From Solirubrobacterales bacterium (GTDB taxonomy: Bacteria; Actinomycetota; Thermoleophilia; Solirubrobacterales; Solirubrobacteraceae), in assembly GCA_025964155.1 (NCBI GenBank), contig JAOPZJ010000379.1, positions 1-40,956 on the forward strand: a stretch of DNA of 40,956 nt, read 5' to 3'. Positions 6,310 to 18,856 of this stretch are shown one piece after another. Made by a program: the position numbers and the translations under genes. Position 1 is the stretch's first letter, and every line of letters starts with the position of its first letter. The notes beneath the pieces are model-generated. The model was not told the DNA's origin. It searched no databases and saw only the letters and a program-made list of their open reading frames with translations.

Positions 6310-7220
6310 GGTGCGTCCTGGATGAGGAGCGTCGCACCCGTCTCCTCGGCGCGCAGAGCGACGAGCACGGAGAAGTCGCGGTCGCCGTAGCCGCGGTCGC
6401 GCACCTCCTCGAACGTCTCCTGAGCCAGCTTGCCGGCCCGCAACGGCACGCCGATCTCGGCGGCGTAGGTCTCGAGCAGGCCCATGTCCTTGCACATGAG
6501 GCGCACGGCGAAGTCCGCCTCGGTCCTGCCGGCCAGGACGGTGCGCGGCATCCAGTCGCTGAGGATCCAGCTGGCCCCACTGCCGCCGTCGATCGCCTCG
6601 CGCACGCGGTCCACGTCGGCGCCGGCCTTCGCCGCCAGCGCGAGCCCCTCGGCGATGCCGACGGCGATCACGGAACCCATCAGGTTGTTCGCGAGCTTCG
6701 CGATCTCGCCGTGGCCCACCGGGCCGACGTGCACCGGTCGCCCCATGGTCTCCAGGACGTTCCGGCAGCGCGCGTACGCCTCGGGATCGGCGCCGACCAT
6801 GATCGCGAGCTCGCCCTGGCGCGCGACGACCGGCCCGCCGCTGACCGGCGTGTCCAGGATCCCGACGCCGAGCGGGGCCAGGCGCGCGGCGAGCGCCTGC
6901 GGCGTCGCGGGCAGCACGGTGCTGGCGACGAGCACCGAGGCGCCCTCCGCCAGGCCGGCCTCCAGCCCGTCCTCGCCGTCCAGACAGGCCAGGATCTCCG
7001 GCGTGTCGGGCAGCAGGAGCAGGATCACGTCGCAGGCGGCGGCGAGCTCGCGCGGCGTCGCCGCGGCCGTGATGCCGAACGGGGCGAGTGCCTCGACGCG
7101 CGCCGGGTCCAGGTCGTGGGCGTGGACGGCGAAGCCCTGCTCGGCGAGCCGTTCAGCGATGCCCGCGCCGAGCGAGCCGACGCCGAGAACGCCGCAGGTC
7201 TGCTTCATGTCAGCGGACAT
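6306..7220 (-). CDS. 3-hydroxyisobutyrate dehydrogenase / tartronate semialdehyde reductase-like protein
   Basis: A complete 304-residue beta-hydroxyacid dehydrogenase. It has the Rossmann motif GVLGVGSLGAG (residues 10-20), the substrate motif DTPVSGGPVVARQG (about 123-136), the catalytic Lys175 in GEIAKLANN and the helical C-terminal domain. The acidic residue after beta-2 (HAHDLDP) suggests NAD+ rather than NADP+. ATG 7220 overlaps the hyuA2 stop by one base (TGATG); a second ATG four codons in (7208) is also possible. It is the fourth gene of the operon starting at 12215, so it probably processes a hydroxy acid or semialdehyde arising after HyuAB action. It is a paralogue of the partial gene at window position 1. 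Substrate unknown. Confidence 0.9.
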   Translation of the reverse strand: MSADMKQTCGVLGVGSLGAGIAERLAEQGFAVHAHDLDPARVEALAPFGITAAATPRELAAACDVILLLLPDTPEILACLDGEDGLEAGLAEGASVLVASTVLPATPQALAARLAPLGVGILDTPVSGGPVVARQGELAIMVGADPEAYARCRNVLETMGRPVHVGPVGHGEIAKLANNLMGSVIAVGIAEGLALAAKAGADVDRVREAIDGGSGASWILSDWMPRTVLAGRTEADFAVRLMCKDMGLLETYAAEIGVPLRAGKLAQETFEEVRDRGYGDRDFSVLVALRAEETGATLLIQDAP

Positions 7221-9307
7221 CACGCCACCACCCCATGGAGCTGGGCGGCAAACGCCGCGCCGCGTTCGCCGCTGTGGACGGCGAAGGCACCGTAGGCGTC
7301 CACGTCGAGCGTGAAGTGCTCGGGGACGACGATCGTCGTGCTCGAGAGCTCGACGATCGCGGGGCCGTTGAACGTGAAGCCCGCCGGCAGCGCCGACCCG
7401 TCCCACACCGGGGCGTCGACGAGCGCGCGCTCGGTGGCGGACCAGACGGGCCGCGTCCCGATCTGCACATCGCGGTCCGGATCCACCTCGTCGGTCCCGG
7501 TGAGCCCGGGCTTTTCGGTGCGCCCGATAGCGCCGAGCCGCACGGCGAGCACCTCCACCGGGGCGCCCGGTGAGGCATGGCCAAAGAGGCGGTCGTGCTC
7601 GCGGTGGAAGGCCTCGGCGGCCTCGGTGAGGTCGAGCGGCAGCTCGACCGCGACCGTGAGCTCGTGCCATTGGCCGATGTAGCGGAGGTCCAGGGCGGCG
7701 CGCAGCTCGATCCGGTCGGCCGGCACGCCCTCGCGTTTCAGCGTGTCGCGGCCCGTCGTGCCCATGTCGTCGAACAGCGCGGCAAGCTGGGCGCCGTCGG
7801 CGGCGGCCAGCGCTGCCTTGTACGCGCGCACGTAGTCGTGCTTGAAGTCGGACATCAGCATGCCGGCGGCGCAGAAGATCGACGACTCCCGCGGGACGAG
7901 CAGGGCCGGGATGTCGAGCTCACGGGCGATCGCCGCCGCGTGCAGCGGGCCAGCGCCGCCCGCCACGACGAGCGGGAAGTCACGCGGGTCAAGGCCGCGC
8001 CGCACGCTGATGTCGCGCACGCCTGTCGCCATCGTCACGTTCACGAGGTCGTAGACGCCGGCCGCCGTCTGGTCCACCGTCAAGCCCAGCCGTTCCGCCA
8101 GCGGGGTGAAGGCCGCCACGGCGGCGGCGCGATCGAGCGTCATGCCGCCGTGGCGGAAGGACTCCTCGCCGAGGTCGCCGAGCACGAGGTCGGCGTCGGT
8201 GACCGTGGGCTGGGTCCCGCCGCGGCCGTAGCAGGCGGGGCCCGGCTGGGCGCCCGCGCTCTGTGGGCCGACATGCAGCAGCCCGCCGTCGTCGAGCCAG
8301 GCGATCGAGCCGCCGCCGGCGCCGATCGTGTGGATGTCGATTGTCGGCAGCGCGAGGCGCCAGCGGTCGACGATGCCGTCGACCATCAGCAGCGGCTCGC
8401 CGTCACTCACGAGGGCGGCGTCGAAGCTCGTGCCGCCCATGTCGACGGTGATGCAGTCCTTCAGGCCGTGCGGCGCGAGCTGCCAGAGGCCGGCGGTCGG
8501 TCCCGAGGCCGGGCCAGACAGCAGCGACAGCGCGGCACGCTCGCTGATCTCCGCGGGCGTCGCGACGCCGCCGTTGGACTGCATGATGAGGAGCGTCCCA
8601 CCGAAGGCGAGGTCGCGCAGGCGCCCGGTGAGCGCGTCCAGGTAGCGCGAGATGATCGGCCCGACGTAGGCGTTGAGCACGGTCGTGCTCGTGCGGTCGT
8701 AGTAGCGCACCTGCGGCAGCAGGTCGCTGGACGCGGTGACGTACACGTCCGGCAGCAGCTCGGCGAGCAGATCGCGGGCACGGGCCTCGTGGTCGGCGTT
8801 CGCCGGCGAGTGCATGAAGGAGATCGCGACCGCCTCGACCTCGTCGTGCGCGAACGCGGCCGCGGCGGCGCGCACGTCCTCCTCGTGCAGCGGCTCCAGC
8901 TCCTTGCCACTGAAGTCCAGCCGGCCGCCGACGGGCAGGCGCCCGTGGCGCGGGACCAGCGGCCGGGGCGGCTGCAGGCGGTTGTCGTAGGGCTCCTCGC
9001 GGGTGCCGTCGCGCAGCGCCAGGACGTCGCGGAAGCCCTCGGTGACGAGCAGCCCGGTCCGCGCGCCGCGGTGGGTCAGGACCGCGTTCGTGGTGACCGT
9101 CGTGCCGTGCACGATCAGGTCGAGCTGCGCGACGAAGGCGCCGAGGTCGAGGCCGAGCTGCCCCGCGATCTCCTCCAGGCCGGTGACGAAGCCGCGCGAG
9201 GGGTCGTCCGGCGTGGAGCTCGTCTTGTGGACGAGGCGCACCTCATCGCCGATGAGGAGGAAGTCGGTGAAGGTGCCGCCCACGTCGATGCCGATGCGAT
9301 AGCTCAT
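7220..9307 (-). CDS. hyuA: Hydantoinase/oxoprolinase family protein, subunit A (HyuA-type, copy 2)
   Basis: The protein has 695 residues. The same motifs as copy 1 are present: IGIDVGGTFTDFLLIG, VHGTTVTTNAVL and VDMGGTSFDAALV, plus the GAGGGSIAWLDDGGLLHVGP block that both copies share almost exactly. It is the ATP-handling subunit of a HyuAB enzyme. ATG 9307 overlaps the hyuB2 stop in an ATGA arrangement, so the order here is B then A, the reverse of the first pair. The middle and C-terminal parts differ clearly from copy 1, so this is an old paralogue and probably has a different substrate. The overlap downstream couples it to the dehydrogenase gene. Confidence 0.93.
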   Translation of the reverse strand: MSYRIGIDVGGTFTDFLLIGDEVRLVHKTSSTPDDPSRGFVTGLEEIAGQLGLDLGAFVAQLDLIVHGTTVTTNAVLTHRGARTGLLVTEGFRDVLALRDGTREEPYDNRLQPPRPLVPRHGRLPVGGRLDFSGKELEPLHEEDVRAAAAAFAHDEVEAVAISFMHSPANADHEARARDLLAELLPDVYVTASSDLLPQVRYYDRTSTTVLNAYVGPIISRYLDALTGRLRDLAFGGTLLIMQSNGGVATPAEISERAALSLLSGPASGPTAGLWQLAPHGLKDCITVDMGGTSFDAALVSDGEPLLMVDGIVDRWRLALPTIDIHTIGAGGGSIAWLDDGGLLHVGPQSAGAQPGPACYGRGGTQPTVTDADLVLGDLGEESFRHGGMTLDRAAAVAAFTPLAERLGLTVDQTAAGVYDLVNVTMATGVRDISVRRGLDPRDFPLVVAGGAGPLHAAAIARELDIPALLVPRESSIFCAAGMLMSDFKHDYVRAYKAALAAADGAQLAALFDDMGTTGRDTLKREGVPADRIELRAALDLRYIGQWHELTVAVELPLDLTEAAEAFHREHDRLFGHASPGAPVEVLAVRLGAIGRTEKPGLTGTDEVDPDRDVQIGTRPVWSATERALVDAPVWDGSALPAGFTFNGPAIVELSSTTIVVPEHFTLDVDAYGAFAVHSGERGAAFAAQLHGVVA

Positions 9308-11061
9308 ACCCGTGCCTCCGCCCGCAGGCGCTGTGTCTCGTCTTCGTCGATGGTCCGGCCGTCGGCGCTGACCGCGACGCCGTAGTCGCGGGCGGCCGCG
9401 TCGCGGCCCAGCAGGCCGTCGCGCACCTCGGCGCGCACCAGCTCGGGGTCGCGCAGGAAGGCGTCCCCGTACCCGCCGCCGCCGCCGTTGACGGACTCGC
9501 AGACGGTGCCGGGCGGGATGTGGTCGATGATTTCCTTCGAGCCCCAGTCGCGGACGCTGCCGTCCGGGAGCCGCAGCCGCAGCTCGTTGAGGCTGCCGGG
9601 GCCGCCGCCGAACAGGCCGTGGGCCGGCTCGGCGCCCTCGGAGGCCATGTCGTCGCCGATGGTCGTCCCCGCCTCGTTCTCGCCGTAGAAGGTCCAGCTC
9701 GAGCGGGTGCCGTACCCGCCGCGCCATTCGCCGTGGCCGGCAGAGTCCGGCAGGTACTCGTTGTAGTGCATGAGGTGGGGGGTGGAGAGCTCGAACATCT
9801 CCATGTCGGGGGACCGCATGCTGCCGGGCGTGCCGGTGAATCCGAGCGCGTCGTAGCCGTCGGCGCCGCGCATCGCGCCGGGGCCGCCGCGCTGGAAGAT
9901 CGTCAGGGAGACGGACGGTTCGCCGGTGCGCGGATCGGTCGCGCTCAGAGCCGTGCACAGGAACTGGTTCCAGCCGGCCGTGACGCGGTCGGGCAGGATC
10001 TCGGCGAGCGCGCGCATGATCGACTCCAGGACCTCGTCGCACATCTGGTTGCCGAAGATCGTCGACGCCGGGAAGTGCGGGTCGATCAGGGAACCCTTGC
10101 GGAAGACCGTGTGGATCGGGGCGAACAGCCCGTGGTTGGCGGGCGTGGACAGCCCGCCCGCAGTGACCAGCATCAGGAAGGCGATGCGGATCGCGCCGAT
10201 CGCGGCCGCCGCGGGCATGTTCGTAAAGCCGGGCGCCTGGTCGTCGGTCTCGCTGAAGTCGAAGGTGATCTCCGACCCGGCGATCGTCACGGCGACCGCG
10301 ATCCGGTAGCGCTTGGAGGGGTCCAGGCCGTCGGACTGCATGAAGCTCTCGCCGTGGTAGGTCCCGTCGGGCCAGCGCTCGATCTCGGCGCGCACCTGCC
10401 GCTCGGAGGCGTCGATCACGTAGTCCATGTGCGTGTCGAACGAGGCCACGCCGTAGCGCTCGAGGACGGCGCCGAGGCGTCGCTTGCCGATCGTGCAGGC
10501 GCCGATCATCGCCTTGATGTCCTCGGCCACGATCTCCAGGCGGATGTTCGCGCGGACAAGGTCCCACACGTCGCGGCGGAGCTTGCCCTGCTCCTGGATC
10601 TTCAGCGGCGGGATGCGGAACGCCTCCTGCCAGACGTCGCGGGCGCGCGGATCGTAGCCGCCGGCCGTCATGCCGCCGATGTCGGCGACGTGGCCCTTGC
10701 TCGCGCTCCAGGCCACGAGCTCGCCCTCAAAGAAGATGGGGAGGAAGACGCCGACGTCGGCGTTCTGGTTGCCGCCGGTGTAGACGTCGTTGTGGAGGAT
10801 GACGTCCCCGTCGTGCAGGTCCTCGCCGAAGTACTCGATGATGTGCGCGAGCGGCGGCTGGGCGCCGTTGGCGATGATCGACGCGTACTCCGTCTGCGCG
10901 AGCGTGCGGCCCTGGCGGTCGAAGATCACGGTGACCAGGTCGCCGATCTCGTTGAAGATCGGTGAGCGCGAGGAGCGCATGAGAACGGTGGCCATCTCGT
11001 GCGTGATGGCCTGAACGCGCCGCTGCAGCACGGACGCGAGGATCGGATCGGCTGAGCTCAT
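9304..11061 (-). CDS. hyuB: Hydantoinase B/oxoprolinase family protein, subunit B (HyuB-type, copy 2)
   Basis: The protein has 585 residues, about 20 more than copy 1. Family marks are DPILASVLQRRVQAITHEM at the start, LMRSSRSPIFNE, the HNDVYTGGNQNAD metal/substrate region (copy 1 has HNDPY), and NGGGGGYGDAFLRDPE near the C terminus. It works with HyuA copy 2. ATG 11061 overlaps the stop of the creatinase-like gene by four bases, and its own stop overlaps the hyuA2 start by four. Both overlaps show one polycistronic message. The proline-to-valine change in the HND-Y motif sets the two B subunits apart. Confidence 0.93.
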   Translation of the reverse strand: MSSADPILASVLQRRVQAITHEMATVLMRSSRSPIFNEIGDLVTVIFDRQGRTLAQTEYASIIANGAQPPLAHIIEYFGEDLHDGDVILHNDVYTGGNQNADVGVFLPIFFEGELVAWSASKGHVADIGGMTAGGYDPRARDVWQEAFRIPPLKIQEQGKLRRDVWDLVRANIRLEIVAEDIKAMIGACTIGKRRLGAVLERYGVASFDTHMDYVIDASERQVRAEIERWPDGTYHGESFMQSDGLDPSKRYRIAVAVTIAGSEITFDFSETDDQAPGFTNMPAAAAIGAIRIAFLMLVTAGGLSTPANHGLFAPIHTVFRKGSLIDPHFPASTIFGNQMCDEVLESIMRALAEILPDRVTAGWNQFLCTALSATDPRTGEPSVSLTIFQRGGPGAMRGADGYDALGFTGTPGSMRSPDMEMFELSTPHLMHYNEYLPDSAGHGEWRGGYGTRSSWTFYGENEAGTTIGDDMASEGAEPAHGLFGGGPGSLNELRLRLPDGSVRDWGSKEIIDHIPPGTVCESVNGGGGGYGDAFLRDPELVRAEVRDGLLGRDAAARDYGVAVSADGRTIDEDETQRLRAEARV

Positions 11062-12215
11062 CGGACCTTCCAGATATCGCGTGAAACCGCGGAAACGGGG
11101 GATGCGCCTGCGGGACCGACGACGAACGTGTCGGCCATGTAGCCGATCGCGCGTTTGTCGTCGTCGATGACGAACGGGTGCAGGGAGAGGACCATGCCCG
11201 CGGCGAGCGGGTCGGGCGGCGGCGCGTCGCGGTCCTGCACGACGTCTAGGCCGACCCAGGGCTCCTCGATGACGTCCTGGCCGATCCCGTGGCCCGACCA
11301 GTAGGCGCAGCCGGCGCCGTGGCCGGCGACCGCGGCGACGATCGCGCTCTGGGTGGCGTCGGGCGTGTCGCCGGCGCGCAGGGCGCCGGCGCCGGCGTCG
11401 AGCCCGGAGCGCACCGCTGCGTTCATGCGCAGTTGCAGCTCGTCGGGCTCGCCGACGCAGACCATCCGGGACAGCTCCATCCAGTAGCCGAGCGGGCCGA
11501 CGAGCTCGAAGGAGAACGTGTGCATGTCCCCTCGCTGCAGGACGCGGTCCGCCGGCTGGCCGAAGTGCCCGGAGACGGTGCCGTCGCCGAGGGGGCGGCC
11601 GTACATGGTCAGGAACAGCAGGTCCTCGCCGCCGAGCGCGAGCGCCCGGGCCGCGACCTCGGCGCCGATCGTCCGCTCGCTCACGCCGCTGCCAGCGACC
11701 TCGAGCAGCCGCTCGAAGGAGGCGTCGGCGATGCGTGTCGCCTCGCGGACGCCCTCTAGCTCGGTCGGCGACTTGGCCGCGCGGAGCCGCTCGAACGCCG
11801 GGCTCGCGTCGATGATCTCGGCGTCGGGGAAGGCGGCGCGGATCGCCAGGTAGTCCTCCACTTTCATGATCTGGCCAAGGCCGACGATCCCGATCCGCCC
11901 GGGCGTACCGGTGGCGCGCAGTGCATCCGCGAGCCCGTCGCCCATGTGCCGGACGTGGTCGACCGGCGTGTCCCAGTCCCCGACCGGGTTCATCGCGAGG
12001 TTCACCGGGAGCAGCAGACGCGGCTCGCGCCCAGGGGCGGCGATCGCGTAGCCGTAGCGGTGGGCGAGGTTGAGGTCGCCGACCCACCGGAGCGTGCCCT
12101 TATGACCGCGGTAGTCGTTGGCGGCGAGCACGAGCACGTCAAGCTGCTGCTCGCGCAGGAGCTGTTGCAGGAGCTCCCAGCGGCGGTCGCGTTCGGCGAG
12201 GGGTAGGGCGGTCAT
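11058..12215 (-). CDS. Creatinase/Xaa-Pro peptidase-fold protein (M24) lacking most metal ligands
   Basis: The protein has 385 residues: an N-terminal creatinase-type domain (about 1-145) and a C-terminal pita-bread domain (150-385) with SGHGIGQDV (His309) and GMVLSLHPFV. Of the five metal ligands of methionine aminopeptidase-type members only His309 is in place. The two aspartates become Ser/Glu (HTFSFELVG, ELSRM with Glu247), and the last two glutamates become His346 and Ala361. Creatinase, a metal-free C-N hydrolase of this fold, has similar substitutions, and His217 and Glu247 could take its base and substrate-binding roles. ATG 12215 is chosen because the fold begins right after it. It is the first gene of the hyuB2-hyuA2 operon, so it may hydrolyse the ring-opened amide product. 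Function inferred. Confidence 0.82.
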   Translation of the reverse strand: MTALPLAERDRRWELLQQLLREQQLDVLVLAANDYRGHKGTLRWVGDLNLAHRYGYAIAAPGREPRLLLPVNLAMNPVGDWDTPVDHVRHMGDGLADALRATGTPGRIGIVGLGQIMKVEDYLAIRAAFPDAEIIDASPAFERLRAAKSPTELEGVREATRIADASFERLLEVAGSGVSERTIGAEVAARALALGGEDLLFLTMYGRPLGDGTVSGHFGQPADRVLQRGDMHTFSFELVGPLGYWMELSRMVCVGEPDELQLRMNAAVRSGLDAGAGALRAGDTPDATQSAIVAAVAGHGAGCAYWSGHGIGQDVIEEPWVGLDVVQDRDAPPPDPLAAGMVLSLHPFVIDDDKRAIGYMADTFVVGPAGASPVSAVSRDIWKVR

Positions 12216-12300
12216 TGCAACGATCAGACCACAGTGCCTGGCGGGCTTCAACGGACATTTTGTTATGTTTTGCAGTCGGACCCGGTACAGTGCCGACTAT
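12216..12300. promoter_or_regulatory. Divergent control region between creatinase-like operon and FadR-type regulator 2
   Basis: This 85-base spacer holds two direct copies of ACAGTGCC (12231-12238 and 12287-12294, 56 bases apart). It also has an inverted repeat AGTCGG (12274-12279) / CCGACT (12293-12298) around the second copy. For the plus strand, TACAGT (12286-12291) is a possible -10 box with TTATGT (12263-12268) 17 bases upstream as a weak -35. The repeats are good candidates for sites of regulator 2, which would then control both directions. Role inferred; repeats seen directly. Confidence 0.5.
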
Positions 12301-13011
12301 ATGAGCGTCACGTTCGGTCGGCGGACGGTCCTCTCGGCTCCGCAGCAGATCTGCGCCTCGATCGAGGCGCTCGTGCTCGACGGCACGCTCCGGCCCGGCG
12401 ACCGCTTGCCACGGGTCGACCTGATGGCAGAGCGCTTCGGCGTGTCGGCGCCGACCGCCCATCGGGCGCTACGGTCGCTGCGCGAGGCGGGCGTGCTGGC
12501 GGCGACCCGGGGCCGCAACGGCGGCTACCGCGTCACCTCGGCTGCGCTCGACGCGATCGACGCCGGCGGCGAGGAGTGGCTCGCGGTGCCGACGTCCGTG
12601 GGGTACGCGCAGCTCCTCGAGGTCCGCGAGGTCCAGGACGTGCTGACCGCGCGCGCGGCCGCCGCCAAGCGCACGGAGGCCGACATCGACGCGCTCGAGG
12701 CGGTGTTGCCGTCGACGCTGCCCGCGGACCCCGAGGTCGCGTTTGCGCTCGACCTGCGCTTCCACCGGTCGCTCGCCCAGTGCACCCACAACCCGGTCAT
12801 CGTCGGCTTCACGGGTGCGACCGCGCTGGCGCTGCGGCGCTTCCCGCGATCGAGCGAGCTCGCGCCCGCCGAGATCGTCGCGGAGCTCGATGGCGTCGCC
12901 AGCGCGATCCGCCGGCGCGACGGCAACGCGGCGGCGCAGGCGATGCGCCGCCATCTGCGCCGGTCGGCGGACTTCTTCGACCGCGCTTCCCTGCCACCGC
13001 TCGATGCCTGA
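12301..13011 (+). CDS. FadR/FCD-type GntR transcriptional regulator (regulator 2)
   Basis: The protein has 236 residues with an N-terminal winged helix (about 14-80) and an FCD domain (about 95-230). The recognition region reads FGVSAPTAHRALRSLR; the usual PTVREAL is altered to PTAHRAL, so its operator may differ from that of regulator 1. The FCD block LDLRFHRSLAQCTHNPVIVGF and the late RHLRRSADFF supply the likely metal ligands. ATG 12301 directly follows a TACAGT box with nine bases between, suggesting a very short leader. It overlaps the SDR gene by eight bases, so it is co-transcribed with SDR and the carboxymuconolactone-decarboxylase-like gene. Divergent to the creatinase-like operon, it probably regulates that operon and itself. 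Confidence 0.9.
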   Translation: MSVTFGRRTVLSAPQQICASIEALVLDGTLRPGDRLPRVDLMAERFGVSAPTAHRALRSLREAGVLAATRGRNGGYRVTSAALDAIDAGGEEWLAVPTSVGYAQLLEVREVQDVLTARAAAAKRTEADIDALEAVLPSTLPADPEVAFALDLRFHRSLAQCTHNPVIVGFTGATALALRRFPRSSELAPAEIVAELDGVASAIRRRDGNAAAQAMRRHLRRSADFFDRASLPPLDA

Positions 13012-13753
13012 GCCGCTGCCCTTCGCCGGCCGGGTCGCGATCGTGACCGGCGCCGGCCGGGGCACCGGGCAGGCCATCGCGGCCACGCTCGGCGCCCGCG
13101 GGGCCCGTGTCGTCGTCGCTGACATCGACGGTGCGGCCGCCGCACGAGTCGCGCACGAGCTCGGCCCCCGCGGCGTCCCCGCGACGGTCGACGTCGCGGA
13201 CTGGGCCGCCGTGCACGCACTCGTGGACGACACCGTGGTGCGGGAGGGCCGGCTCGACGTGCTCGTCAACAACGCCGCCCGCAGCGTCGCACGGAGCTTT
13301 TGGGAGATCGACCCGGACGAGTGGGACAGCGTCATCGCGACGAACCTGCGCAGCGTGTTCGCCGGATGCCGGGCCGCCGGCGCCCACATGCGCGAGCGCG
13401 GAGTGGGCCGCATCGTCAACCTCGCGTCGCTCGCCGGGCAGCAGGGCGGGGTCAACGGCGGGGCGCACTACGCGGCGTCCAAAGCCGGCATCGTCGTGCT
13501 CACGAAGATCGCGGCGGCCGAGCTGGCCGGCAGCGGCGTGACCGTGAACGCCATCGCCCCGGCCGCGATCTCCGGGCCGATCCTGGATGCGCTGCCCGTC
13601 GAGCGCCAGGCGGCCATCGCCGCGTCGATCCCCGTCGGCCGTGTCGGCCGCCCCGAGGAAGTGGCCGCCACCGTGGCGTTCCTCGTCTCCGACGAGGCGG
13701 CGTACATCACCGGCACGACGATCGACGTCAACGGCGGCCTCTTCATGCGCTGA
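13004..13753 (+). CDS. Short-chain dehydrogenase/reductase (FabG-like)
   Basis: A classical 249-residue SDR. The cofactor motif is TGAGRGTG (15-22); the NNAA motif is at 89-92; the catalytic residues are Ser142 (NLASLAG), Tyr156 and Lys160 (YAASK). Asp40 after beta-2 (VVVADIDG) favours NAD+. Such enzymes interconvert alcohols and ketones, including 3-oxoacyl or hydroxy-acid substrates. The start ATG lies inside the end of regulator 2 (8-base overlap), which shows coupling. Neighbouring carboxymuconolactone-decarboxylase-like and beta-oxidation genes suggest a role in the same catabolic path. The substrate cannot be deduced. Confidence 0.92.
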   Translation: MPEPLPFAGRVAIVTGAGRGTGQAIAATLGARGARVVVADIDGAAAARVAHELGPRGVPATVDVADWAAVHALVDDTVVREGRLDVLVNNAARSVARSFWEIDPDEWDSVIATNLRSVFAGCRAAGAHMRERGVGRIVNLASLAGQQGGVNGGAHYAASKAGIVVLTKIAAAELAGSGVTVNAIAPAAISGPILDALPVERQAAIAASIPVGRVGRPEEVAATVAFLVSDEAAYITGTTIDVNGGLFMR

Positions 13754-13779
13754 CCAGACCGAGAGAACCGAGAGGACCC

Positions 13780-14184
13780 ATGACCGAGTCACACCAGGAC
13801 CGCCGCGCCCGCGGTGTCGCCGCGTTCGCCAGCCAGTTCGACCTGCCCGAGGGTGAGGTCGTGGCGTTCATGGACAACATGCTCGGGCCGTGTATGGCCG
13901 AGGAGGCGCAGCGGGCGAACGCGGCCGCGTGGACCGATGATGCCCTCTCGATGCGCGACCGCAGTCTCGTCGTCATTGCGAGTCTTGTCACCCAAGGGGG
14001 CGTGGAGCCGCGGCTGCGGGGCCACCTGCAATGGGCGATCCGCAACGGGGTCACCCGAGCCGAGCTGGACGCGCTGATGGCGATGCTCGCGGTCTACGTC
14101 GGCTATCCGAAGGCCTCCACGGGCATGCAGCTGCTGCGCGAGGAGCTCGGACCGGGCGAAGGCGAGGCCGGCGATGCCCGCTGA
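13780..14184 (+). CDS. Carboxymuconolactone decarboxylase-family protein
   Basis: The protein has 134 residues. The segment RDRSLVVIASLVTQGG-PRLRGHLQWAIRNGVTRAELDALM (about residues 63-105) is the hallmark of gamma-carboxymuconolactone decarboxylases, with the conserved His in GHLQWA. No CxxC pair is present, so it is not an AhpD-type peroxidase. The true PcaC reaction decarboxylates an intermediate of protocatechuate breakdown, but most family members outside pca operons have unknown roles. GAGAGG lies about nine bases before the ATG. It follows the SDR gene by 26 bases and overlaps a short SRPBCC-like stump at its end. Confidence 0.85.
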   Translation: MTESHQDRRARGVAAFASQFDLPEGEVVAFMDNMLGPCMAEEAQRANAAAWTDDALSMRDRSLVVIASLVTQGGVEPRLRGHLQWAIRNGVTRAELDALMAMLAVYVGYPKASTGMQLLREELGPGEGEAGDAR

Positions 14185-14287
14185 CGATCCGCACGCCCAT
14201 TACGCCAGCGTCGAGGTGGCCGCGACCGCCGCAAGGGCATTCGCCTTCCTAGCCCTCCAGGATGAACCAGACGGGGCAGTTAGCTGA
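14174..14287 (+). pseudogene. Truncated SRPBCC-like (polyketide cyclase/START-fold) gene stump
   Basis: An ATG at 14174, inside the last codons of the preceding gene, opens a 37-residue frame ending at TGA 14285-14287. The peptide (HYASVEVAATAARAFAFLA) resembles the first beta strand and helix of SRPBCC proteins, which typically begin with a pattern like V-VEI-A-PE-VFAFLAD. The rest of the roughly 140-residue domain is missing. The overlapping start resembles a real operon gene, so it looks like the remains of a third gene behind the SDR and decarboxylase genes, cut off where the thiolase promoter begins. It could also be a chance frame; similarity is judged by eye only. Confidence 0.4.
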
Positions 14288-14322
14288 CATATCAGCGGGG
14301 TAAAGTGTTGTATGTTTGCACC
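14283..14322 (+). promoter_or_regulatory. Thiolase operon promoter with perfect 5-bp-arm dyad
   Basis: The inverted repeat GCTGA-CATA-TCAGC occupies 14283-14296. A -10-like TATGTT (14311-14316) lies six bases before the ATG at 14323, so the message is probably leaderless. The dyad then falls about 27-40 bases before the start, where a repressor would block the -35 region. The stop codon of the SRPBCC-like stump lies inside the dyad. Operator function is inferred; a FadR-type regulator from this window is a natural candidate. Confidence 0.45.
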
Positions 14323-15531
14323 ATGCCCGGAGCCTGGATCATGGACGCGCTGCGCACACCCGTCGGCCGCCACCGCGGTGCGCTCGCCGCGGTACGGCCC
14401 GACGACCTTGCGGCGCGGGTCGTCGGCGCCGTCGTTGATCGCAGCGGGGTGGATCCAGCGGTCATCGACGACGTCTACCTCGGCTGCACGAACGGCGTGG
14501 GCGAGGACAGCCGCAACGTCGCGCGGATGGCCGTCCTCCTCGCCGGGCTCCCGGACGCGGTCCCCGGCGCGACGGTGAACCGTCTATGCGGCTCGGGGAT
14601 GGAGGCGGTCGCCGGCGCCGCGCGTGTGGTGCGCTGCGGCGAGGGCGACGTCATCCTCGCAGGAGGCGTCGAATCGATGAGCCGTGCCCCGTGGGCGATG
14701 CTCAAGCCCGAGCGGGCGCAGCCGTGGGGTGACGCCGAGCTGGCCGACACCACGATCGGCTGGCGGTTCGTCAACCCGGGCATGCCCGAGCGCGCGACCG
14801 TCTCGATGGGCGGTACGGCCGAGAACGTCGCGGAGCGGTTCGCCGTCAGCCGCGCCGACCAAGACGCCTTCGCGCTGACCTCGCACCGCCGCGCCGTGGC
14901 GGCGCAGGCGGCCGGCCGCTTCGCCGACGAGCTCGTGACGGTGTTCGTGCCTTCCCGCCGCGCAGAGCCCGTCGCCGTCGATACCGACGAAGCCCCGCGT
15001 GCGGACACGAGCCTCGACGGCCTGGCGAAGCTACGCCCGGCCTTCCGGGACGGCGGCTCGGTCACCGCCGGGAACGCGTCATCCCTCAACGACGGGGCGG
15101 CGGCACTGGTGTTGGCCAGCGACGCCGGGCGGGAGCGGTTCGCCCGGCCCCCGCTGGCGCGCATCGTGGCGAGTGCCACCGCCGGCGTCGATCCGGCGCT
15201 CATGGGCATGGGTCCGGTGCCGGCCGTCCGGACGGCCCTGCGGCGGGCAGGCCTGACCCTCGACGACATCGGCGTCGTGGAGCTGAACGAGGCGTTCGCG
15301 TCACAGTCGCTGGCCTGCATCCGCGAGCTCGGAATCGACCCCGAGATCGTCAACCCCAACGGCGGAGCGATCGCGCTCGGTCACCCACTCGGCAGCACTG
15401 GCGCGCGGCTGCTGGCCACGCTGGCGTGGGAACTGCGCCACCGCGGCGTCCGCTACGGCTTGGCGACGATGTGTATCGGCGTAGGCCAGGGCATCGCCGT
15501 CGTCCTCGAGAACCCCGAGGTGACGACATGA
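14323..15531 (+). CDS. Acetyl-CoA acyltransferase (thiolase)
   Basis: The protein has 402 residues. The catalytic set is complete: Cys89 in VNRLCGSGMEAV, the GHP histidine in ALGHPLGSTGAR, and the C-terminal cysteine in ATMCIGVGQG. The N-terminal DALRTPVGRHRGAL is typical of degradative thiolases of the FadA/PcaF group. It cleaves 3-oxoacyl-CoA to acetyl-CoA and a shortened acyl-CoA. ATG 14323 is preferred over GTG 14305 because TATGTT stands six bases upstream and the conserved N terminus starts here. Its stop overlaps the next start (ATGA). With the next two genes it forms a near-complete beta-oxidation cycle, lacking only an acyl-CoA dehydrogenase and ligase. PcaF-like 3-oxoadipyl-CoA thiolase is a possible alternative. 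Confidence 0.93.
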   Translation: MPGAWIMDALRTPVGRHRGALAAVRPDDLAARVVGAVVDRSGVDPAVIDDVYLGCTNGVGEDSRNVARMAVLLAGLPDAVPGATVNRLCGSGMEAVAGAARVVRCGEGDVILAGGVESMSRAPWAMLKPERAQPWGDAELADTTIGWRFVNPGMPERATVSMGGTAENVAERFAVSRADQDAFALTSHRRAVAAQAAGRFADELVTVFVPSRRAEPVAVDTDEAPRADTSLDGLAKLRPAFRDGGSVTAGNASSLNDGAAALVLASDAGRERFARPPLARIVASATAGVDPALMGMGPVPAVRTALRRAGLTLDDIGVVELNEAFASQSLACIRELGIDPEIVNPNGGAIALGHPLGSTGARLLATLAWELRHRGVRYGLATMCIGVGQGIAVVLENPEVTT

Positions 15532-16697
15532 GCATCGCCACGCCCGCGCGGCTCGGCGTCGTCGGGGCAGGCACGATGGGCGCGGGCATCGCCGGCCTCG
15601 CCGCCCGGTGCGGACTCGTCACCACGCTGTTCGACATCGCCGAGGCACCGCTCGCCATCGGCCGCGAGCGGATCGACGTGTCGCTCGACCGGGCCGTGGC
15701 GAAGCGCCGCGTGGGAGCCGACGATGCGGCCGCCGCCCGCGCGCGCCTGACCACGACGACGGCGCTCGCCGACCTCGTCGCCTGCGAGGTCATCATCGAG
15801 GCGGCCCCCGAGCGGGCTGACCTCAAGGGCGAGCTCCTGGCCCGGCTCGCCGAGGTGGCGCCCGGCGCCGTGCTCGCGTCGAACACGTCGTCGATCGCGA
15901 TCGCCGACCTGGCCGAGCGCTCCGGCGTACCCAGGCGCGTCGTGGGCCTGCACTTCTTCAACCCACCCGCCGCGATGCCGCTCGTCGAGCTGGTGGCGAC
16001 CGCGCGGACGGACGCCAGCGCGGTGGCGCGGGCGCGGGCACTGGCCGAGGCGCTTGGCAAGGACGTGGTCGACGTCTCCGATGGACCGGGGTTCCTCGTC
16101 AATCGCTGCGCACGGCCGTATTACCTGGAGGCGCTGCGCATCGTCGAGGACGGCGCCGCGACGTTCGCGCAGGTCGACCGGGTCTGCGTGGAGGACGGCG
16201 GCTTCCCGCTCGGGCCGTTCGAGCTGATGGACGTCATCGGCGTCGACGTCTCGCTCGCGGTGACGCGCTCCATGTGGGAGCAGTCCTTCGGGGAGCCGCG
16301 CTGGCGACCCAGCCCGCTGCAGGTGCGGCTCGTCGGCGGCGGGCGTCTCGGCCGCAAGACGGGAGGGGGTTTCTACGAGGCGGGGGCCGGCTGGGCCGAC
16401 CTGCCCGCGCCGGCTCCCGCGGCCCGCACCACGATCCTCGACCGCATCCTGGCGCAGCTCGTGAACGAGGCGGCCTTCGCGGTCACCGCGGGAGTCGCGT
16501 CCGCCGCCGAGATCGACCGAGCCATGGTGGTTGGGCTCAGCCACCCGCGGGGACCCGGCGCCTGGGCGTCGCTGCTCGGACACGACCGGGTGATCGCCAC
16601 GCTGGACGACCTGTGGACGCGCGAGCACGATCCCCGCTACCGCGTGGCCCCGGGGCTGCGGCGTGCCGCTGCCGCGGCGGTGGGCATCGATGCCTGA
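15528..16697 (+). CDS. 3-hydroxyacyl-CoA dehydrogenase with duplicated C-terminal domain (PaaH-like)
   Basis: The protein has 389 residues. An NAD-binding Rossmann domain has VVGAGTMGAG (residues 11-20); Asp36 ends beta-2; the catalytic His142 is in GLHFFNPP; GPFELMDVIGVDV marks the first C-terminal helical domain. A second helical domain (about 300-385) contains LVNEAAFAV and SHPRGPGAWA, as in PaaH-type enzymes. It oxidises (S)-3-hydroxyacyl-CoA to 3-oxoacyl-CoA with NAD+. No crotonase domain is fused; that activity is encoded by the next gene, which overlaps by eight bases. The start overlaps the thiolase stop (ATGA), so the three genes are translated as one coupled unit. Confidence 0.93.
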   Translation: MSIATPARLGVVGAGTMGAGIAGLAARCGLVTTLFDIAEAPLAIGRERIDVSLDRAVAKRRVGADDAAAARARLTTTTALADLVACEVIIEAAPERADLKGELLARLAEVAPGAVLASNTSSIAIADLAERSGVPRRVVGLHFFNPPAAMPLVELVATARTDASAVARARALAEALGKDVVDVSDGPGFLVNRCARPYYLEALRIVEDGAATFAQVDRVCVEDGGFPLGPFELMDVIGVDVSLAVTRSMWEQSFGEPRWRPSPLQVRLVGGGRLGRKTGGGFYEAGAGWADLPAPAPAARTTILDRILAQLVNEAAFAVTAGVASAAEIDRAMVVGLSHPRGPGAWASLLGHDRVIATLDDLWTREHDPRYRVAPGLRRAAAAAVGIDA

Positions 16698-17460
16698 CGG
16701 GGTCCGCTTGGAGCGGGACGGAGCGGTCGCCGCGCTGGTCCTCGACCGTCCTGAGCGCCGCAACGCGCTTACCGACCATGTGCTGGAACTGCTTGCCGAT
16801 CACGCTACAGCGTGCGATCTGGACCCCGACATCCGGTGCATCGTCGTGGAAGGCGGAGACGAGGTCTTCGCCGCCGGGGCCGACGTGCGGGCGCTCTCGG
16901 CGCACTCGGCGGTCGAGATCCGCGCCGGCGAGCGGGCTCGACACTGGGACGTGCTGCGGCGCGTGCGCACGCCGATCGTCGCGGGGGTCTCCGGGCTCTG
17001 TCTAGGCGGCGGCTGCGAGCTCGCGATGCTCGCCGATGTCGTCATCGCCTCCACCTCCGCCCGCTTCGGCCTGCCGGAGACCGGCCTCGGTCTCGTGCCG
17101 GGGGCGGGTGGCACGCAGCTGCTACCGCGGGCCGTCGGGAAGGCCATCGCGATGGACGTGGCGCTCACCGGCCGGCTGCTGAGCGCCGAGGAGGCCGAGC
17201 GGGCCGGGTTGGTCTCGCGCGTGGTCGCGCCGGACGAGTGGCGGTCGACGGCACACAAGCTCGCGGCCCGGATCGCGTCCCGTCCCGCCGTCGCCCAGCA
17301 ACTGGCGAAGGAGCTCATCGCCGCGTCGTTCGAGACGCCGCTCCAGGCCGGGCTCGCGGCCGAGCGCAGCGGCTTCGCCGTCGCCTTCTCGTCCGAGGAC
17401 GCGCGCGAGGGGATGTCCGCGTTCCTCGAGAAGCGCGACCCCGCGTGGCGTCACCGCTGA
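16690..17460 (+). CDS. Enoyl-CoA hydratase/isomerase
   Basis: A 256-residue crotonase-fold protein. The oxyanion-hole segment reads FAAGADVRAL, and the catalytic glutamates stand 20 apart as in classical hydratases: Glu110 in GGGCELAMLADV and Glu130 in GLPETGLGLVPGAGGTQ. It hydrates trans-2-enoyl-CoA to (S)-3-hydroxyacyl-CoA. Its ATG is within the last codons of the dehydrogenase gene, and it is last in the operon. A strong hairpin begins 43 bases after its stop. Both glutamates argue for a true hydratase, not only an isomerase. PaaF-like specificity is possible given the PaaH-like neighbour. Confidence 0.92.
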   Translation: MPDGVRLERDGAVAALVLDRPERRNALTDHVLELLADHATACDLDPDIRCIVVEGGDEVFAAGADVRALSAHSAVEIRAGERARHWDVLRRVRTPIVAGVSGLCLGGGCELAMLADVVIASTSARFGLPETGLGLVPGAGGTQLLPRAVGKAIAMDVALTGRLLSAEEAERAGLVSRVVAPDEWRSTAHKLAARIASRPAVAQQLAKELIAASFETPLQAGLAAERSGFAVAFSSEDAREGMSAFLEKRDPAWRHR

Positions 17461-17503
17461 GCAGGTCACAGACCACAGCCAAGGTCGACCCGCTCCGAGG
17501 CGC

Positions 17504-17549
17504 CGAACGTCGATCATCACCGGCCCTGGGCCGTGATGATCGACGTTCG
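17504..17549. terminator. Perfect 17-bp hairpin between convergent operons
   Basis: Arms at 17504-17520 (CGAACGTCGATCATCAC) and 17533-17549 are exact reverse complements around a 12-base GC-rich loop that can itself pair. It sits between the enoyl-CoA hydratase stop (17460, plus) and the membrane-protein stop (17566, minus), so it can terminate both directions. No run of T follows on either side, common in high-GC actinobacteria. A transcript-stabilising or protein-binding role is possible. Confidence 0.75.
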
Positions 17550-17565
17550 AGGCTCTCAACCCCGG

Positions 17566-17808
17566 TCAGCGTTCCACGGCTCGCACGGCGGACACCGCCA
17601 GGCGCATGCCTTGCACGACGCAGCCCACGGCGGCGAGGACGAAGAGCACCGCGACGACGACGCTGAGCCACCAGATCAGGCCGGCGACCATGAGGGCCAG
17701 CACCGCACGGATGAACCACCGGCGCGCCTCCCGCTGCAAGCCGGCCGCACGGACCTCCGCCTGCTCGCGACGCTCCGCCGCCTTCGCCCGCTCATGTTGC
17801 CGGGCCAC
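17566..17808 (-). CDS. Small membrane protein of unknown function
   Basis: An 80-residue protein. A charged, helical, Arg/Glu/Ala-rich N terminus (about 1-30) is followed by one long or two short hydrophobic segments (about residues 34-66, LALMVAGLIWWLSVVVAVLFVL) and a short basic tail. The charged start suggests a cytoplasmic coiled helix anchored in the membrane. GTG 17808 lies one base after the stop of the upstream gene, so translation is probably coupled to it. The family is not recognised. The neighbour is a protein with a possible nuclease-like core, but no shared job can be read from the sequence. Confidence 0.6.
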   Translation of the reverse strand: MARQHERAKAAERREQAEVRAAGLQREARRWFIRAVLALMVAGLIWWLSVVVAVLFVLAAVGCVVQGMRLAVSAVRAVER

Positions 17809-17809
17809 G

Positions 17810-18499
17810 TCAGGATCCCGTCAGGGTCGCGCGGCGGTGCAGCGGTGCGCGGCTGCGCTTGCCCGCCGGCTCGATGAGCTCCATGAGATGCAGGCAATAG
17901 GCGGTGCGCTGGGCGAGCATCGTGCGGCAGCCGAGGAGCGTCGCGAGCTCGCGGGTGCTGAACGGCTCCTGTGGCAACGGGGGGAGCGCCGCGAGGATGT
18001 CGGCCGGCGTGCGCAGCTCCACGCGCTCGAGCACGTCGACCAGGCGGCGCTCACCGCTGTCCCGCGTCCGCCGGCGCTTCGTGACCGGCGCCGCGCCGCG
18101 GATGTGGTCCTCGCGCGTGAGCAGCACCTCGACGACGAGGTTGGGGTGGGCCAGGAGCGACGGGAACGTGACGAGCTTGTCGAACAGCTCCACGAGCGTC
18201 GCGCGCCGCGGCGAGCGCCGGCTCGACAGCACCTCGCCGTGCGCGTCGAGGCGCACGATGCGCCGCTCGGCGGCGACCGGATGGACGATGCGGACGCGAT
18301 GATCGTCCAGGAGCGCGTCGAGCTTGGGTCCAAGCGGGCCGAAGCCGCCGGTCTGCACCTCGACGAGCTCGCCGTCGGCGCGGACGAGGTCGATCACGAA
18401 GCGGCCGACGGGCACCTCCATGCGGTCGCCGGGTCGCGCGAGCATCGCCTTGACGGCCGCGTGGAGCGGTCCTTCGCGAAGCACGCCGATGCCCGACAC
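17810..18499 (-). CDS. Unknown protein: possible PD-(D/E)XK-like core plus C-terminal winged helix
   Basis: About 229 residues from GTG 18499. Residues 25-62 read like a PD-(D/E)XK nuclease core: VGRFVIDLVR (Asp37), then LVEVQTGGFG (Glu47-x-Gln49), then KLDALL (Lys59). Gln replaces the usual lysine of ExK, known in some active and some inactive members. The C-terminal part (about 165-225) resembles a winged helix, with PFSTRELATLLG as the turn and KRSRAPLHRR as the wing. The GTG start is preferred because TAGCCT stands eight bases upstream (leaderless); an ATG at 18547 in the same frame is the alternative. It diverges from the zinc-ribbon gene at 18536. Function not established; the nuclease-fold idea is inference. 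Confidence 0.65.
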   Translation of the reverse strand: MSGIGVLREGPLHAAVKAMLARPGDRMEVPVGRFVIDLVRADGELVEVQTGGFGPLGPKLDALLDDHRVRIVHPVAAERRIVRLDAHGEVLSSRRSPRRATLVELFDKLVTFPSLLAHPNLVVEVLLTREDHIRGAAPVTKRRRTRDSGERRLVDVLERVELRTPADILAALPPLPQEPFSTRELATLLGCRTMLAQRTAYCLHLMELIEPAGKRSRAPLHRRATLTGS

Positions 18500-18535
18500 G
18501 AGGGCGGAGGCTACCCGCTTCCTAGACTCGTCCTC
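18500..18535. promoter_or_regulatory. Compact divergent pair of leaderless promoters
   Basis: Only 36 bases separate the GTG at 18499 (minus) from the GTG at 18536 (plus). On the plus strand TAGACT (18523-18528) ends seven bases before GTG. On the minus strand TAGCCT (18513-18508) ends eight bases before its GTG. Each fits a -10 box for a message whose first bases are the start codon. The two polymerase footprints would overlap, so the two genes would compete or be co-regulated. Confidence 0.55.
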
Positions 18536-18856
18536 GTGACGTTCCATCGTGGTATCGACGAGCCGGGCCCGATCCGCCCCGGGCCGGTGGGGGGACTGGC
18601 CGGGGCCTACGACCATCGGCAGCGCACGAGATCCTCGCGCCTGGCCGTCGGGACGCTCGCCTGCCCGGCGTGCGATGCGCCGGTGCTCCCGGCCGGCCGC
18701 CCGATGACCCCGGCGGACCGGATCGTGTGTCCCGTCTGCCATGAGACCGGGGTGGTGCGGGACTTCCTGTCTCTCGCCACGCCGACGCGGCCGGCCCGCG
18801 TCGTCGTGCGCGTGATCCAGTCGCCGGTGGGCGCGGGCCGTCGCCAGCGTCAGTAG
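18536..18856 (+). CDS. Small zinc-ribbon-like protein
   Basis: A 106-residue basic protein. Two cysteine pairs, Cys43-x2-Cys46 (LACPACDAP) and Cys65-x2-Cys68 (IVCPVCHE), 19 residues apart, make a zinc ribbon. The N-terminal 40 residues are Gly/Pro/Arg-rich and probably unstructured; the C terminus ends in a basic [11 protein letters not shown] 18536 is chosen because TAGACT stands seven bases upstream and the frame has no better start before the ribbon. Its stop overlaps that of the convergent response regulator by a few bases. Zinc ribbons bind nucleic acid or protein partners; the partner is unknown. The shared promoter region links it to the divergent unknown gene. Confidence 0.65.

What the first reader, a model, noticed from the sequence alone, without database searches (positions are those of the whole stretch)
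14174..14322. SRPBCC-like gene stump joined to a new promoter with a perfect dyad
A 37-codon frame that starts inside the preceding gene looks like the first strand and helix of an SRPBCC protein and then stops. Its stop codon falls within GCTGA-CATA-TCAGC, the dyad ahead of the leaderless thiolase gene. One reading is a deletion that removed most of the gene and brought the thiolase operon, with its operator, directly behind it, fusing two catabolic units.
Basis: partly seen in the sequence, partly recalled or inferred. Interest (0 to 1): 0.5.

Follow-up and report, generated by a model that had tools for sequence, protein, structure and literature searches.

The report
Truncated gene at a rearrangement junction
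A soil-type actinobacterium carries the first thirty-three codons of a gene that is complete in some relatives, broken by a one-base shift and cut off where a separate set of breakdown-pathway genes with its own promoter has been joined on: a real but ordinary gene remnant.

Summary
The 37-codon frame (14174-14287) is the 5' remnant of an SRPBCC-fold gene. Three of the four close CMD relatives found among 398 other class genomes carry a complete 149-161 aa version right behind CMD; a model of one matches solved SRPBCC/START folds. First, the frame is ended by a frameshift: after one extra base near 14255, codons 28-33 continue in the next frame (14256-14273; 49 of 72 bases match four intact genes, 0 of 7962 controls). 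Second, homology stops at 14273/14274, just before the gene's most conserved block. A thiolase-HBD-ECH set follows with a probable own promoter. In its closest relatives thiolase stands beside a salicylyl-CoA-hydroxylase-type operon; in this genome that operon's homologue is on another contig. So a rearrangement fits at least as well as a simple deletion. The rest of the gene was not found in the 89%-complete MAG. The dyad is not conserved, is near chance, and is not supported as an operator. The junction is known from one MAG; a chimeric contig is unlikely but not excluded. Ordinary pseudogene biology; low interest.

The parts
12265..13011 (+). GntR/FCD regulator gene, first gene of the left unit
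   Evidence: Pfam GntR 1.5e-12, FCD 1.1e-17 (run on 12118-13008); gene bounds
13004..13753 (+). SDR oxidoreductase gene
   Evidence: Pfam adh_short_C2 4e-58; 70% identical gene before CMD in L064
13780..14184 (+). CMD-family (carboxymuconolactone decarboxylase-like) gene
   Evidence: Pfam CMD 1.1e-14; 54-70% identical genes in 4 of 398 other class genomes
14174..14254 (+). codons 1-27 of the SRPBCC remnant, original frame
   Evidence: 14-20 of 27 residues identical to six intact genes; profile E 2.5e-4
14253..14255 (+). run of C that holds one base more than the six intact copies compared: frameshift
   Evidence: DNA alignments
14256..14273 (+). codons 28-33 of the remnant in the shifted frame (SRMNQT)
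   Evidence: 49 of 72 bases match four intact genes; 0 of 2654 in-frame and 0 of 7962 all-frame controls; two further copies, L137 and L138, match 8 and 11 of 18
14274..14293 (.). junction zone; no match to the SRPBCC gene's conserved WALGS block
   Evidence: 17 of 72 bases, reached by 2243 of 2654 controls; 4-5 of 18
14283..14296 (.). dyad GCTGA-CATA-TCAGC, contains the stop 14285-14287 of the 37-codon frame; probably chance
14294..14322 (+). probable promoter of the thiolase set (TATGTT at 14311-14316, ATG at 14323: leaderless if that ATG is used; a GTG at 14305 behind GGGG 14297-14300 is an alternative start)
   Evidence: AGC.GGGT.A..TGT.GTAT.TT shared with L092 and L093 within two bases of the same distance from the start (14 and 15 of 500 shuffles as good); not found by the strict sigma-70 scan
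14323..15531 (+). thiolase gene (3-oxoadipyl-CoA thiolase-like, below the PcaF cut-off)
   Evidence: Pfam Thiolase_N/C; NCBIfam PcaF 534.7 bits, cut-off 597
15528..16697 (+). 3-hydroxyacyl-CoA dehydrogenase (HBD) gene
   Evidence: Pfam 3HCDH_N 2.5e-52
16690..17460 (+). enoyl-CoA hydratase (ECH) gene
   Evidence: Pfam ECH_1 2e-65 (run on 16663-17457)

Best explanation
The feature is a pseudogene remnant at a junction between two gene sets. Shown: an SRPBCC-fold gene that stands complete behind CMD in three relatives survives here only as codons 1-33, with one extra base after codon 27, and its homology ends at 14273/14274. Shown: what follows is a thiolase-HBD-ECH set whose relatives live in other neighbourhoods. 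Inferred: a rearrangement or insertion joined this set, with its own promoter, to the 3' side of the GntR-SDR-CMD unit, and the rest of the SRPBCC gene was lost. Inferred: the 37-residue peptide has no function of its own, and the thiolase set is read mainly from its own promoter, with possible read-through from the CMD transcript. The confidence given is for the remnant and the junction; within that, I put about twice as much weight on rearrangement or insertion as on a plain deletion.
For: CMD relatives at 54-70% identity in 4 of 398 other class genomes; 3 of these 4 carry an intact SRPBCC gene directly after CMD. A profile of those three proteins finds 10 near-full-length copies at E<=2e-30 in 7 of 398 other genomes (3 of the 10 are the ones it was built from), two weak ones at E about 8e-4, and in this MAG only residues 1-27 at the stump, with 9 of 54 candidates scored there; a search of the MAG with one intact protein, all 8 candidates scored, also found only the stump. 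Shifted codons 28-33 match (0 of 7962 controls) and the next 18 bases do not, although intact copies agree at 13-18 of 18 bases there. The model of an intact relative has strand 8-15 and helix 19-27, and Foldseek gives 178 PDB matches at E<=0.001, best CqsB2 6ipv at 7.5e-8. In the closest thiolase relatives L092, L093 and L094 the gene stands beside another operon, whose homologue is on contig C142 of this MAG. No terminator-like site in 12000-18000 (0.9 expected in shuffles).
Against: The junction is seen in one fragmented MAG only. The fourth CMD relative (L065) has no SRPBCC gene behind CMD. The match of the thiolase upstream region to relatives is weak: of five compared, one reached 1 of 500 shuffles, two 14 and 15 of 500, two none. 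The SRPBCC copies of G376, G217, G132, G068 and a second one of G380 show no CMD-like gene in the 1.5-kb flanks, so the pairing with CMD is not general. Six of the eleven close thiolase relatives have neither the divergent arrangement nor its parts as read here, so the ancestral place of the thiolase set is itself uncertain.
Confidence: 0.83

Rival explanations
1. Simple deletion: the SRPBCC gene and the thiolase set once stood near each other, and one deletion removed the SRPBCC 3' part and the genes between. This is a variant within the best explanation, so its odds overlap with those.
For: The missing SRPBCC part was not found in the MAG; a deletion needs a single event.
Against: No relative examined has the two units near each other: behind SRPBCC stand an amidase (L063; L066 by eye from a partial frame) or an FAD oxidoreductase (L064); none of the eleven close thiolase relatives shows a CMD-like gene near thiolase at blastp E 1e-8. 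At most 18 kb around each was examined, some contigs end close by (L068 ends at the thiolase gene), and the MAG is incomplete.
Confidence: 0.3
2. The contig is chimeric: the assembler joined two unrelated pieces of DNA at 14273/14274.
For: MAG of 451 contigs, 89% complete; junction and frameshift lie within 20 bases of each other; the CMD gene has no match at E<=1e-10 in the 60 other relatives searched; the 14-kb left piece is less like the two right pieces in tetranucleotides (0.863, 0.824) than these are like each other (0.909), and is more like a piece of another genome, G224 (0.892); a 19-base match with one mismatch on contig C11 spans the junction.
Against: No long repeat at the junction: of the 40 matches scored (69 candidates), the longest perfect one is 19 bases and lies in the stump, short for an assembler's word length (recalled). 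G+C is 72.7% left and 71.7-72.4% right, without a step at the junction; in 7-kb pieces left-right and right-right correlations overlap. Repeats shared with other organisms of the sample could not be tested.
Confidence: 0.1
3. The 37-codon frame is a real small gene.
For: Its ATG overlaps the CMD stop, as the gene of L063 does, and its 27 matching residues have not drifted further than intact copies from each other (14-20 versus 12-18 of 27).
Against: The 10 strong homologues are near full length; codons 28-37 of the open frame are the remnant read in a wrong frame plus junction DNA.
Confidence: 0.03
4. The dyad is an operator of the thiolase set.
For: Position: just upstream of the probable -10 region, where a repressor could act. 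The 10-base pattern occurs at 6 places in the MAG, the control pattern at 1.
Against: Absent upstream of thiolase in the five relatives compared; near chance; of the five genome sites read (of six), three lie inside predicted genes, one between converging genes, and the fifth is this one.
Confidence: 0.1

Closest known systems
Intact SRPBCC gene behind CMD in Patulibacter medicamentivorans I11 (L064/L083), Conexibacter sp. MAG RYN_242 (L066/L082) and Actinomycetota MAG SZAS-11 (L063/L084)
   Same: Same place behind CMD and matching first 33 codons. HyuA, HyuB and M24 genes also shared with L064 and L066; a GntR gene with L066 and, by eye from the frame, with L064
   Different: There 149-161 aa and complete, followed by an amidase or FAD oxidoreductase; here frameshifted, cut at codon 33 and followed by thiolase
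Thiolase-HBD genes beside a bifunctional salicylyl-CoA 5-hydroxylase/oxidoreductase-type operon (L092; L093 and L094 by gene order and size; L096 a short contig with part of it)
   Same: Thiolase 67-75% identical, HBD directly behind it
   Different: There read divergently from the SDR-ECH-RidA-ACAD-hydroxylase operon; here behind the SRPBCC remnant, with that operon's homologue on contig C142
CqsB2 of Streptomyces exfoliatus (6ipv) and other SRPBCC/START-fold proteins
   Same: Fold of the intact relative; weak profile match to 6ipv (E 0.015)
   Different: 19% identity; only the first strand and helix are left here

Membership tests
SRPBCC (START/Bet v1-like) superfamily, for the intact relatives | helix-grip fold: strand, helix, antiparallel sheet, long C-terminal helix | tested here: met
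   model of the L083 protein, mean pLDDT 77, three-sequence alignment, E8-15 H19-27, further strands, H120-158; 178 PDB matches at E<=0.001, the 50 listed led by CqsB2 with START, PR-10 and PYR-type proteins, TM-scores 0.46-0.64 on the query (that these are SRPBCC is recalled)
SRPBCC (START/Bet v1-like) superfamily, for the intact relatives | match to a curated SRPBCC family model | tested here: not met
   Polyketide_cyc2 PF10604 at 16.7 and 17.1 bits, cut-off 27.4, in 2 of 3 proteins; none in the third
SRPBCC superfamily, for the stump itself | a complete domain | tested here: not met
   only codons 1-33, in two frames; no Pfam match
Pseudogene (truncated, frameshifted) | homologues are clearly longer | tested here: met
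   10 of 10 homologues at E<=2e-30 near full length; 3 of them built the profile
Pseudogene (truncated, frameshifted) | reading frame disrupted | tested here: met
   extra base near 14255; codons 28-33 in the next frame
Pseudogene (truncated, frameshifted) | no working product made | not testable with these tools
   no transcript or protein data
Operator site | conserved in orthologous promoters or repeated before co-regulated genes | tested here: not met
   one of the six genome sites was not read

The most novel reading that the evidence does not exclude
The junction made a new hybrid catabolic operon: the GntR regulator of the SDR-CMD unit now also controls the thiolase-HBD-ECH set by read-through, tying the SDR-CMD step to 3-oxoadipyl-CoA-type cleavage, and the SRPBCC step was given up.
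Probability: 0.12. Interest if true: 0.35.

Novelty: new member of a known kind. Interest (0 to 1): 0.22.

Why it matters
It shows, nearly to the base, how one bacterial catabolic unit lost a gene and gained a neighbour. That is routine genome change, but it gives an ancestral-versus-derived pair for an unnamed SRPBCC-fold family that stands behind CMD in three relatives. It would matter more only if the joined genes proved to be co-regulated.

Tried and rejected
Looked for the missing SRPBCC part in the window and in the MAG. In the window the best match outside the stump was 35 residues at 34122-34220 (E 0.023, one of three queries, out of frame inside the predicted gene 33064-34725); I took it as chance, though with that query it scored better than the stump itself (E 0.19). 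The weak own-genome hit on C203 lies in a LysR-like gene by eye and was taken as chance. Tried to fix the right-hand edge of the joined set with the gene at 17810-18616: found in 7 of 36 other genomes; six of the seven surroundings were read, and none shares the window's neighbours, so it gave no ancestral site. Promoter and terminator scans found nothing in 12000-18000. No Rfam match and no tRNA in the window, so no tRNA-linked integration sign. A plasmid search with CMD gave 96 records, all below 60% identity and none covering 80% of the query. The tetranucleotide comparison was inconclusive. Papers: three searches were seen as listings with the starts of abstracts; none was opened, and nothing here rests on them.

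Full report
What is in the sequence. The window is contig C179 of a 4.69-Mb MAG, 451 contigs, 89% complete. The frame 14174-14287 has 37 codons, overlaps the CMD stop by 11 bases and ends at TGA 14285-14287 inside GCTGA-CATA-TCAGC 14283-14296; thiolase begins at ATG 14323, or at GTG 14305 if the longer frame is used. The letters of the observation are right.

Ancestral state of the left side. The CMD protein matches at 54-70% identity in 4 of 398 other genomes of the class; the remaining matches (43 of 398 genomes match at E<=1e-8 in all) are at most 47% identical. It has no match at E<=1e-10 in 60 other relatives. In three of the four (L063, L064, L066) the next gene after CMD is a 149-161 aa gene whose start matches the stump; in the fourth (L065) it is not. 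The intact gene is followed by an amidase in L063 and an FAD oxidoreductase in L064, and in L066 by a partial frame that reads like an amidase start (by eye). L064 and L066 also share the hydantoinase-type pair and the M24 gene next to the unit. L064 has the SDR before CMD; L066 lacks it, with GntR directly before CMD; in L063 an M28 peptidase-like gene precedes CMD. So GntR-SDR-CMD as a block is seen in L064 only.

What the gene is. Pfam gives only a sub-threshold match to Polyketide_cyc2 in two of three intact proteins. The AlphaFold model (three-sequence alignment, mean pLDDT 77) has strand 8-15, helix 19-27, further strands and a long C-terminal helix. Foldseek against the PDB gives 178 matches at E<=0.001, first CqsB2 (6ipv); the 50 listed include START, PR-10 and PYR-type proteins. 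A profile of the three finds 13 places in 10 of 399 genomes, the window's own included: 10 places in 7 other genomes have E<=2e-30 and are near full length (three of them built the profile), two are weak (E about 8e-4), and the window's covers residues 1-27 only (up to 9 candidates were scored in a genome).

Where the remnant ends. Codons 1-27 share 14-20 of 27 residues with six intact copies; these share 12-18 with each other. Intact genes continue with six codons and then a block that reads (H/R/T)WALGS. In the window one extra base near 14255 shifts the frame; codons 28-33 then read SRMNQT at 14256-14273 and match 11, 14, 12 and 12 of 18 bases of L064, L063, L066 and L131, 49 of 72 together. 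None of 2654 in-frame and none of 7962 all-frame 18-base stretches from seven window genes reaches 49 (first seen with three copies). The two other copies, L137 and L138, which were not in that count, match 8 and 11 of 18. The next 18 bases match 17 of 72, reached by 2243 of 2654 controls, although intact copies agree at 13-18 of 18 there. So homology ends at 14273/14274, and the 37-codon frame is ended by the frameshift, not by the cut.

The right side. Thiolase relatives at 67-75% identity occur in 11 of 398 other class genomes at E<=1e-165 (4 candidates scored per genome). The surroundings of all 11 were read as far as their contigs or the fetched stretches reach. In L092, L093 and L094 thiolase, followed by HBD, is read divergently from an operon; in L092 this holds ECH, RidA, acyl-CoA dehydrogenase and a fused FAD/FMN protein that NCBIfam names bifunctional salicylyl-CoA 5-hydroxylase/oxidoreductase above its cut-off; in L093 and L094 the same is inferred from order and size. 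The SDR next to thiolase was called in L093 and L094 and read by eye in L092. L096 is a short contig with SDR, thiolase, HBD and ECH. L067 is rearranged, with HBD on the other strand. The other six have different neighbours, and L068 ends at the thiolase gene. In this MAG the end of contig C142 carries SDR-ECH-RidA-ACAD-hydroxylase at 68-77% identity, behind another acyl-CoA dehydrogenase gene and with no thiolase in the 10 kb read; C448 carries a second hydroxylase. It looks as if the thiolase set was separated from this partner, but the partner's arrangement in the ancestor is inferred from a few relatives. The similarity of the window's thiolase upstream region to relatives starts about 14294 with L092 and L093 (14 and 15 of 500 shuffles as good) and about 14275 with L096 (1 of 500), and is not seen with L094 and L067.

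The dyad. None of the five thiolase upstream regions compared has it; the shuffled stretch has one like it in 5-23% of trials. The 10-base pattern occurs at 6 places in the MAG against 1 for the control pattern. Five places were read: three in predicted genes, one between converging genes, and this one. I treat it as chance; the excess of 6 over 1 is unexplained.

Mechanism and doubts. A rearrangement or insertion explains both the loss of the SRPBCC 3' part and the thiolase set's new place; a plain deletion would need the two to have been neighbours, which no relative examined shows. A chimeric contig is the main technical rival. Against it: no long repeat at the junction (longest perfect match 19 bases, in the stump; a 19-base match with one mismatch does span the junction; 40 of 69 candidates scored) and no G+C step. 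For it: tetranucleotide likeness of left and right (0.863, 0.824) is below that of the two right pieces (0.909) and the left piece is closer to a G224 piece (0.892), though 7-kb pieces overlap. Reads were not available. Whether the joined genes are transcribed together is not known; no terminator-like site was found between them.

Noticed in passing
L111 (own contig C448) 797-3184; L112 (own contig C142) 9288-10217: Two different copies of a fused FAD_binding_3/Oxidored_FMN protein (salicylyl-CoA 5-hydroxylase/oxidoreductase type by NCBIfam for the C448 copy), 84% alike over 830 bases; one beside an AMP-binding enzyme, one at the end of an SDR-ECH-RidA-ACAD operon with a PaaX-type regulator gene upstream.
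   Followed up: partly
window 1265-5046 and 7220-11061: Two hydantoinase A/B-type gene pairs facing opposite ways in one cluster, with a GntR/FCD gene at 507-1187 and another at 12265-13011; both pairs are kept in Conexibacter MAG RYN_242 (L066) at 78-87% identity.
   Followed up: partly
window 17810-18616: A 268-codon gene without Pfam match (E<=1e-4), 59-78% identical copies in 7 of 36 other related genomes; none of the six surroundings read shares the window's neighbours.
   Followed up: partly
L131, L138, L139 (genome G376): One genome has three near-full-length copies of the unnamed SRPBCC-fold family, none with a CMD-like gene in the 1.5-kb flanks; the copy in L131 is the closest of six to the window's stump (20 of 27 residues).
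   Followed up: partly
L092, L093, L094 upstream of thiolase: Thiolase genes of the closest relatives start with little or no leader behind a TATATT- or TATATA-like box; in L092 a second such box (GTATAC) faces the divergent operon. By eye only.
   Followed up: no
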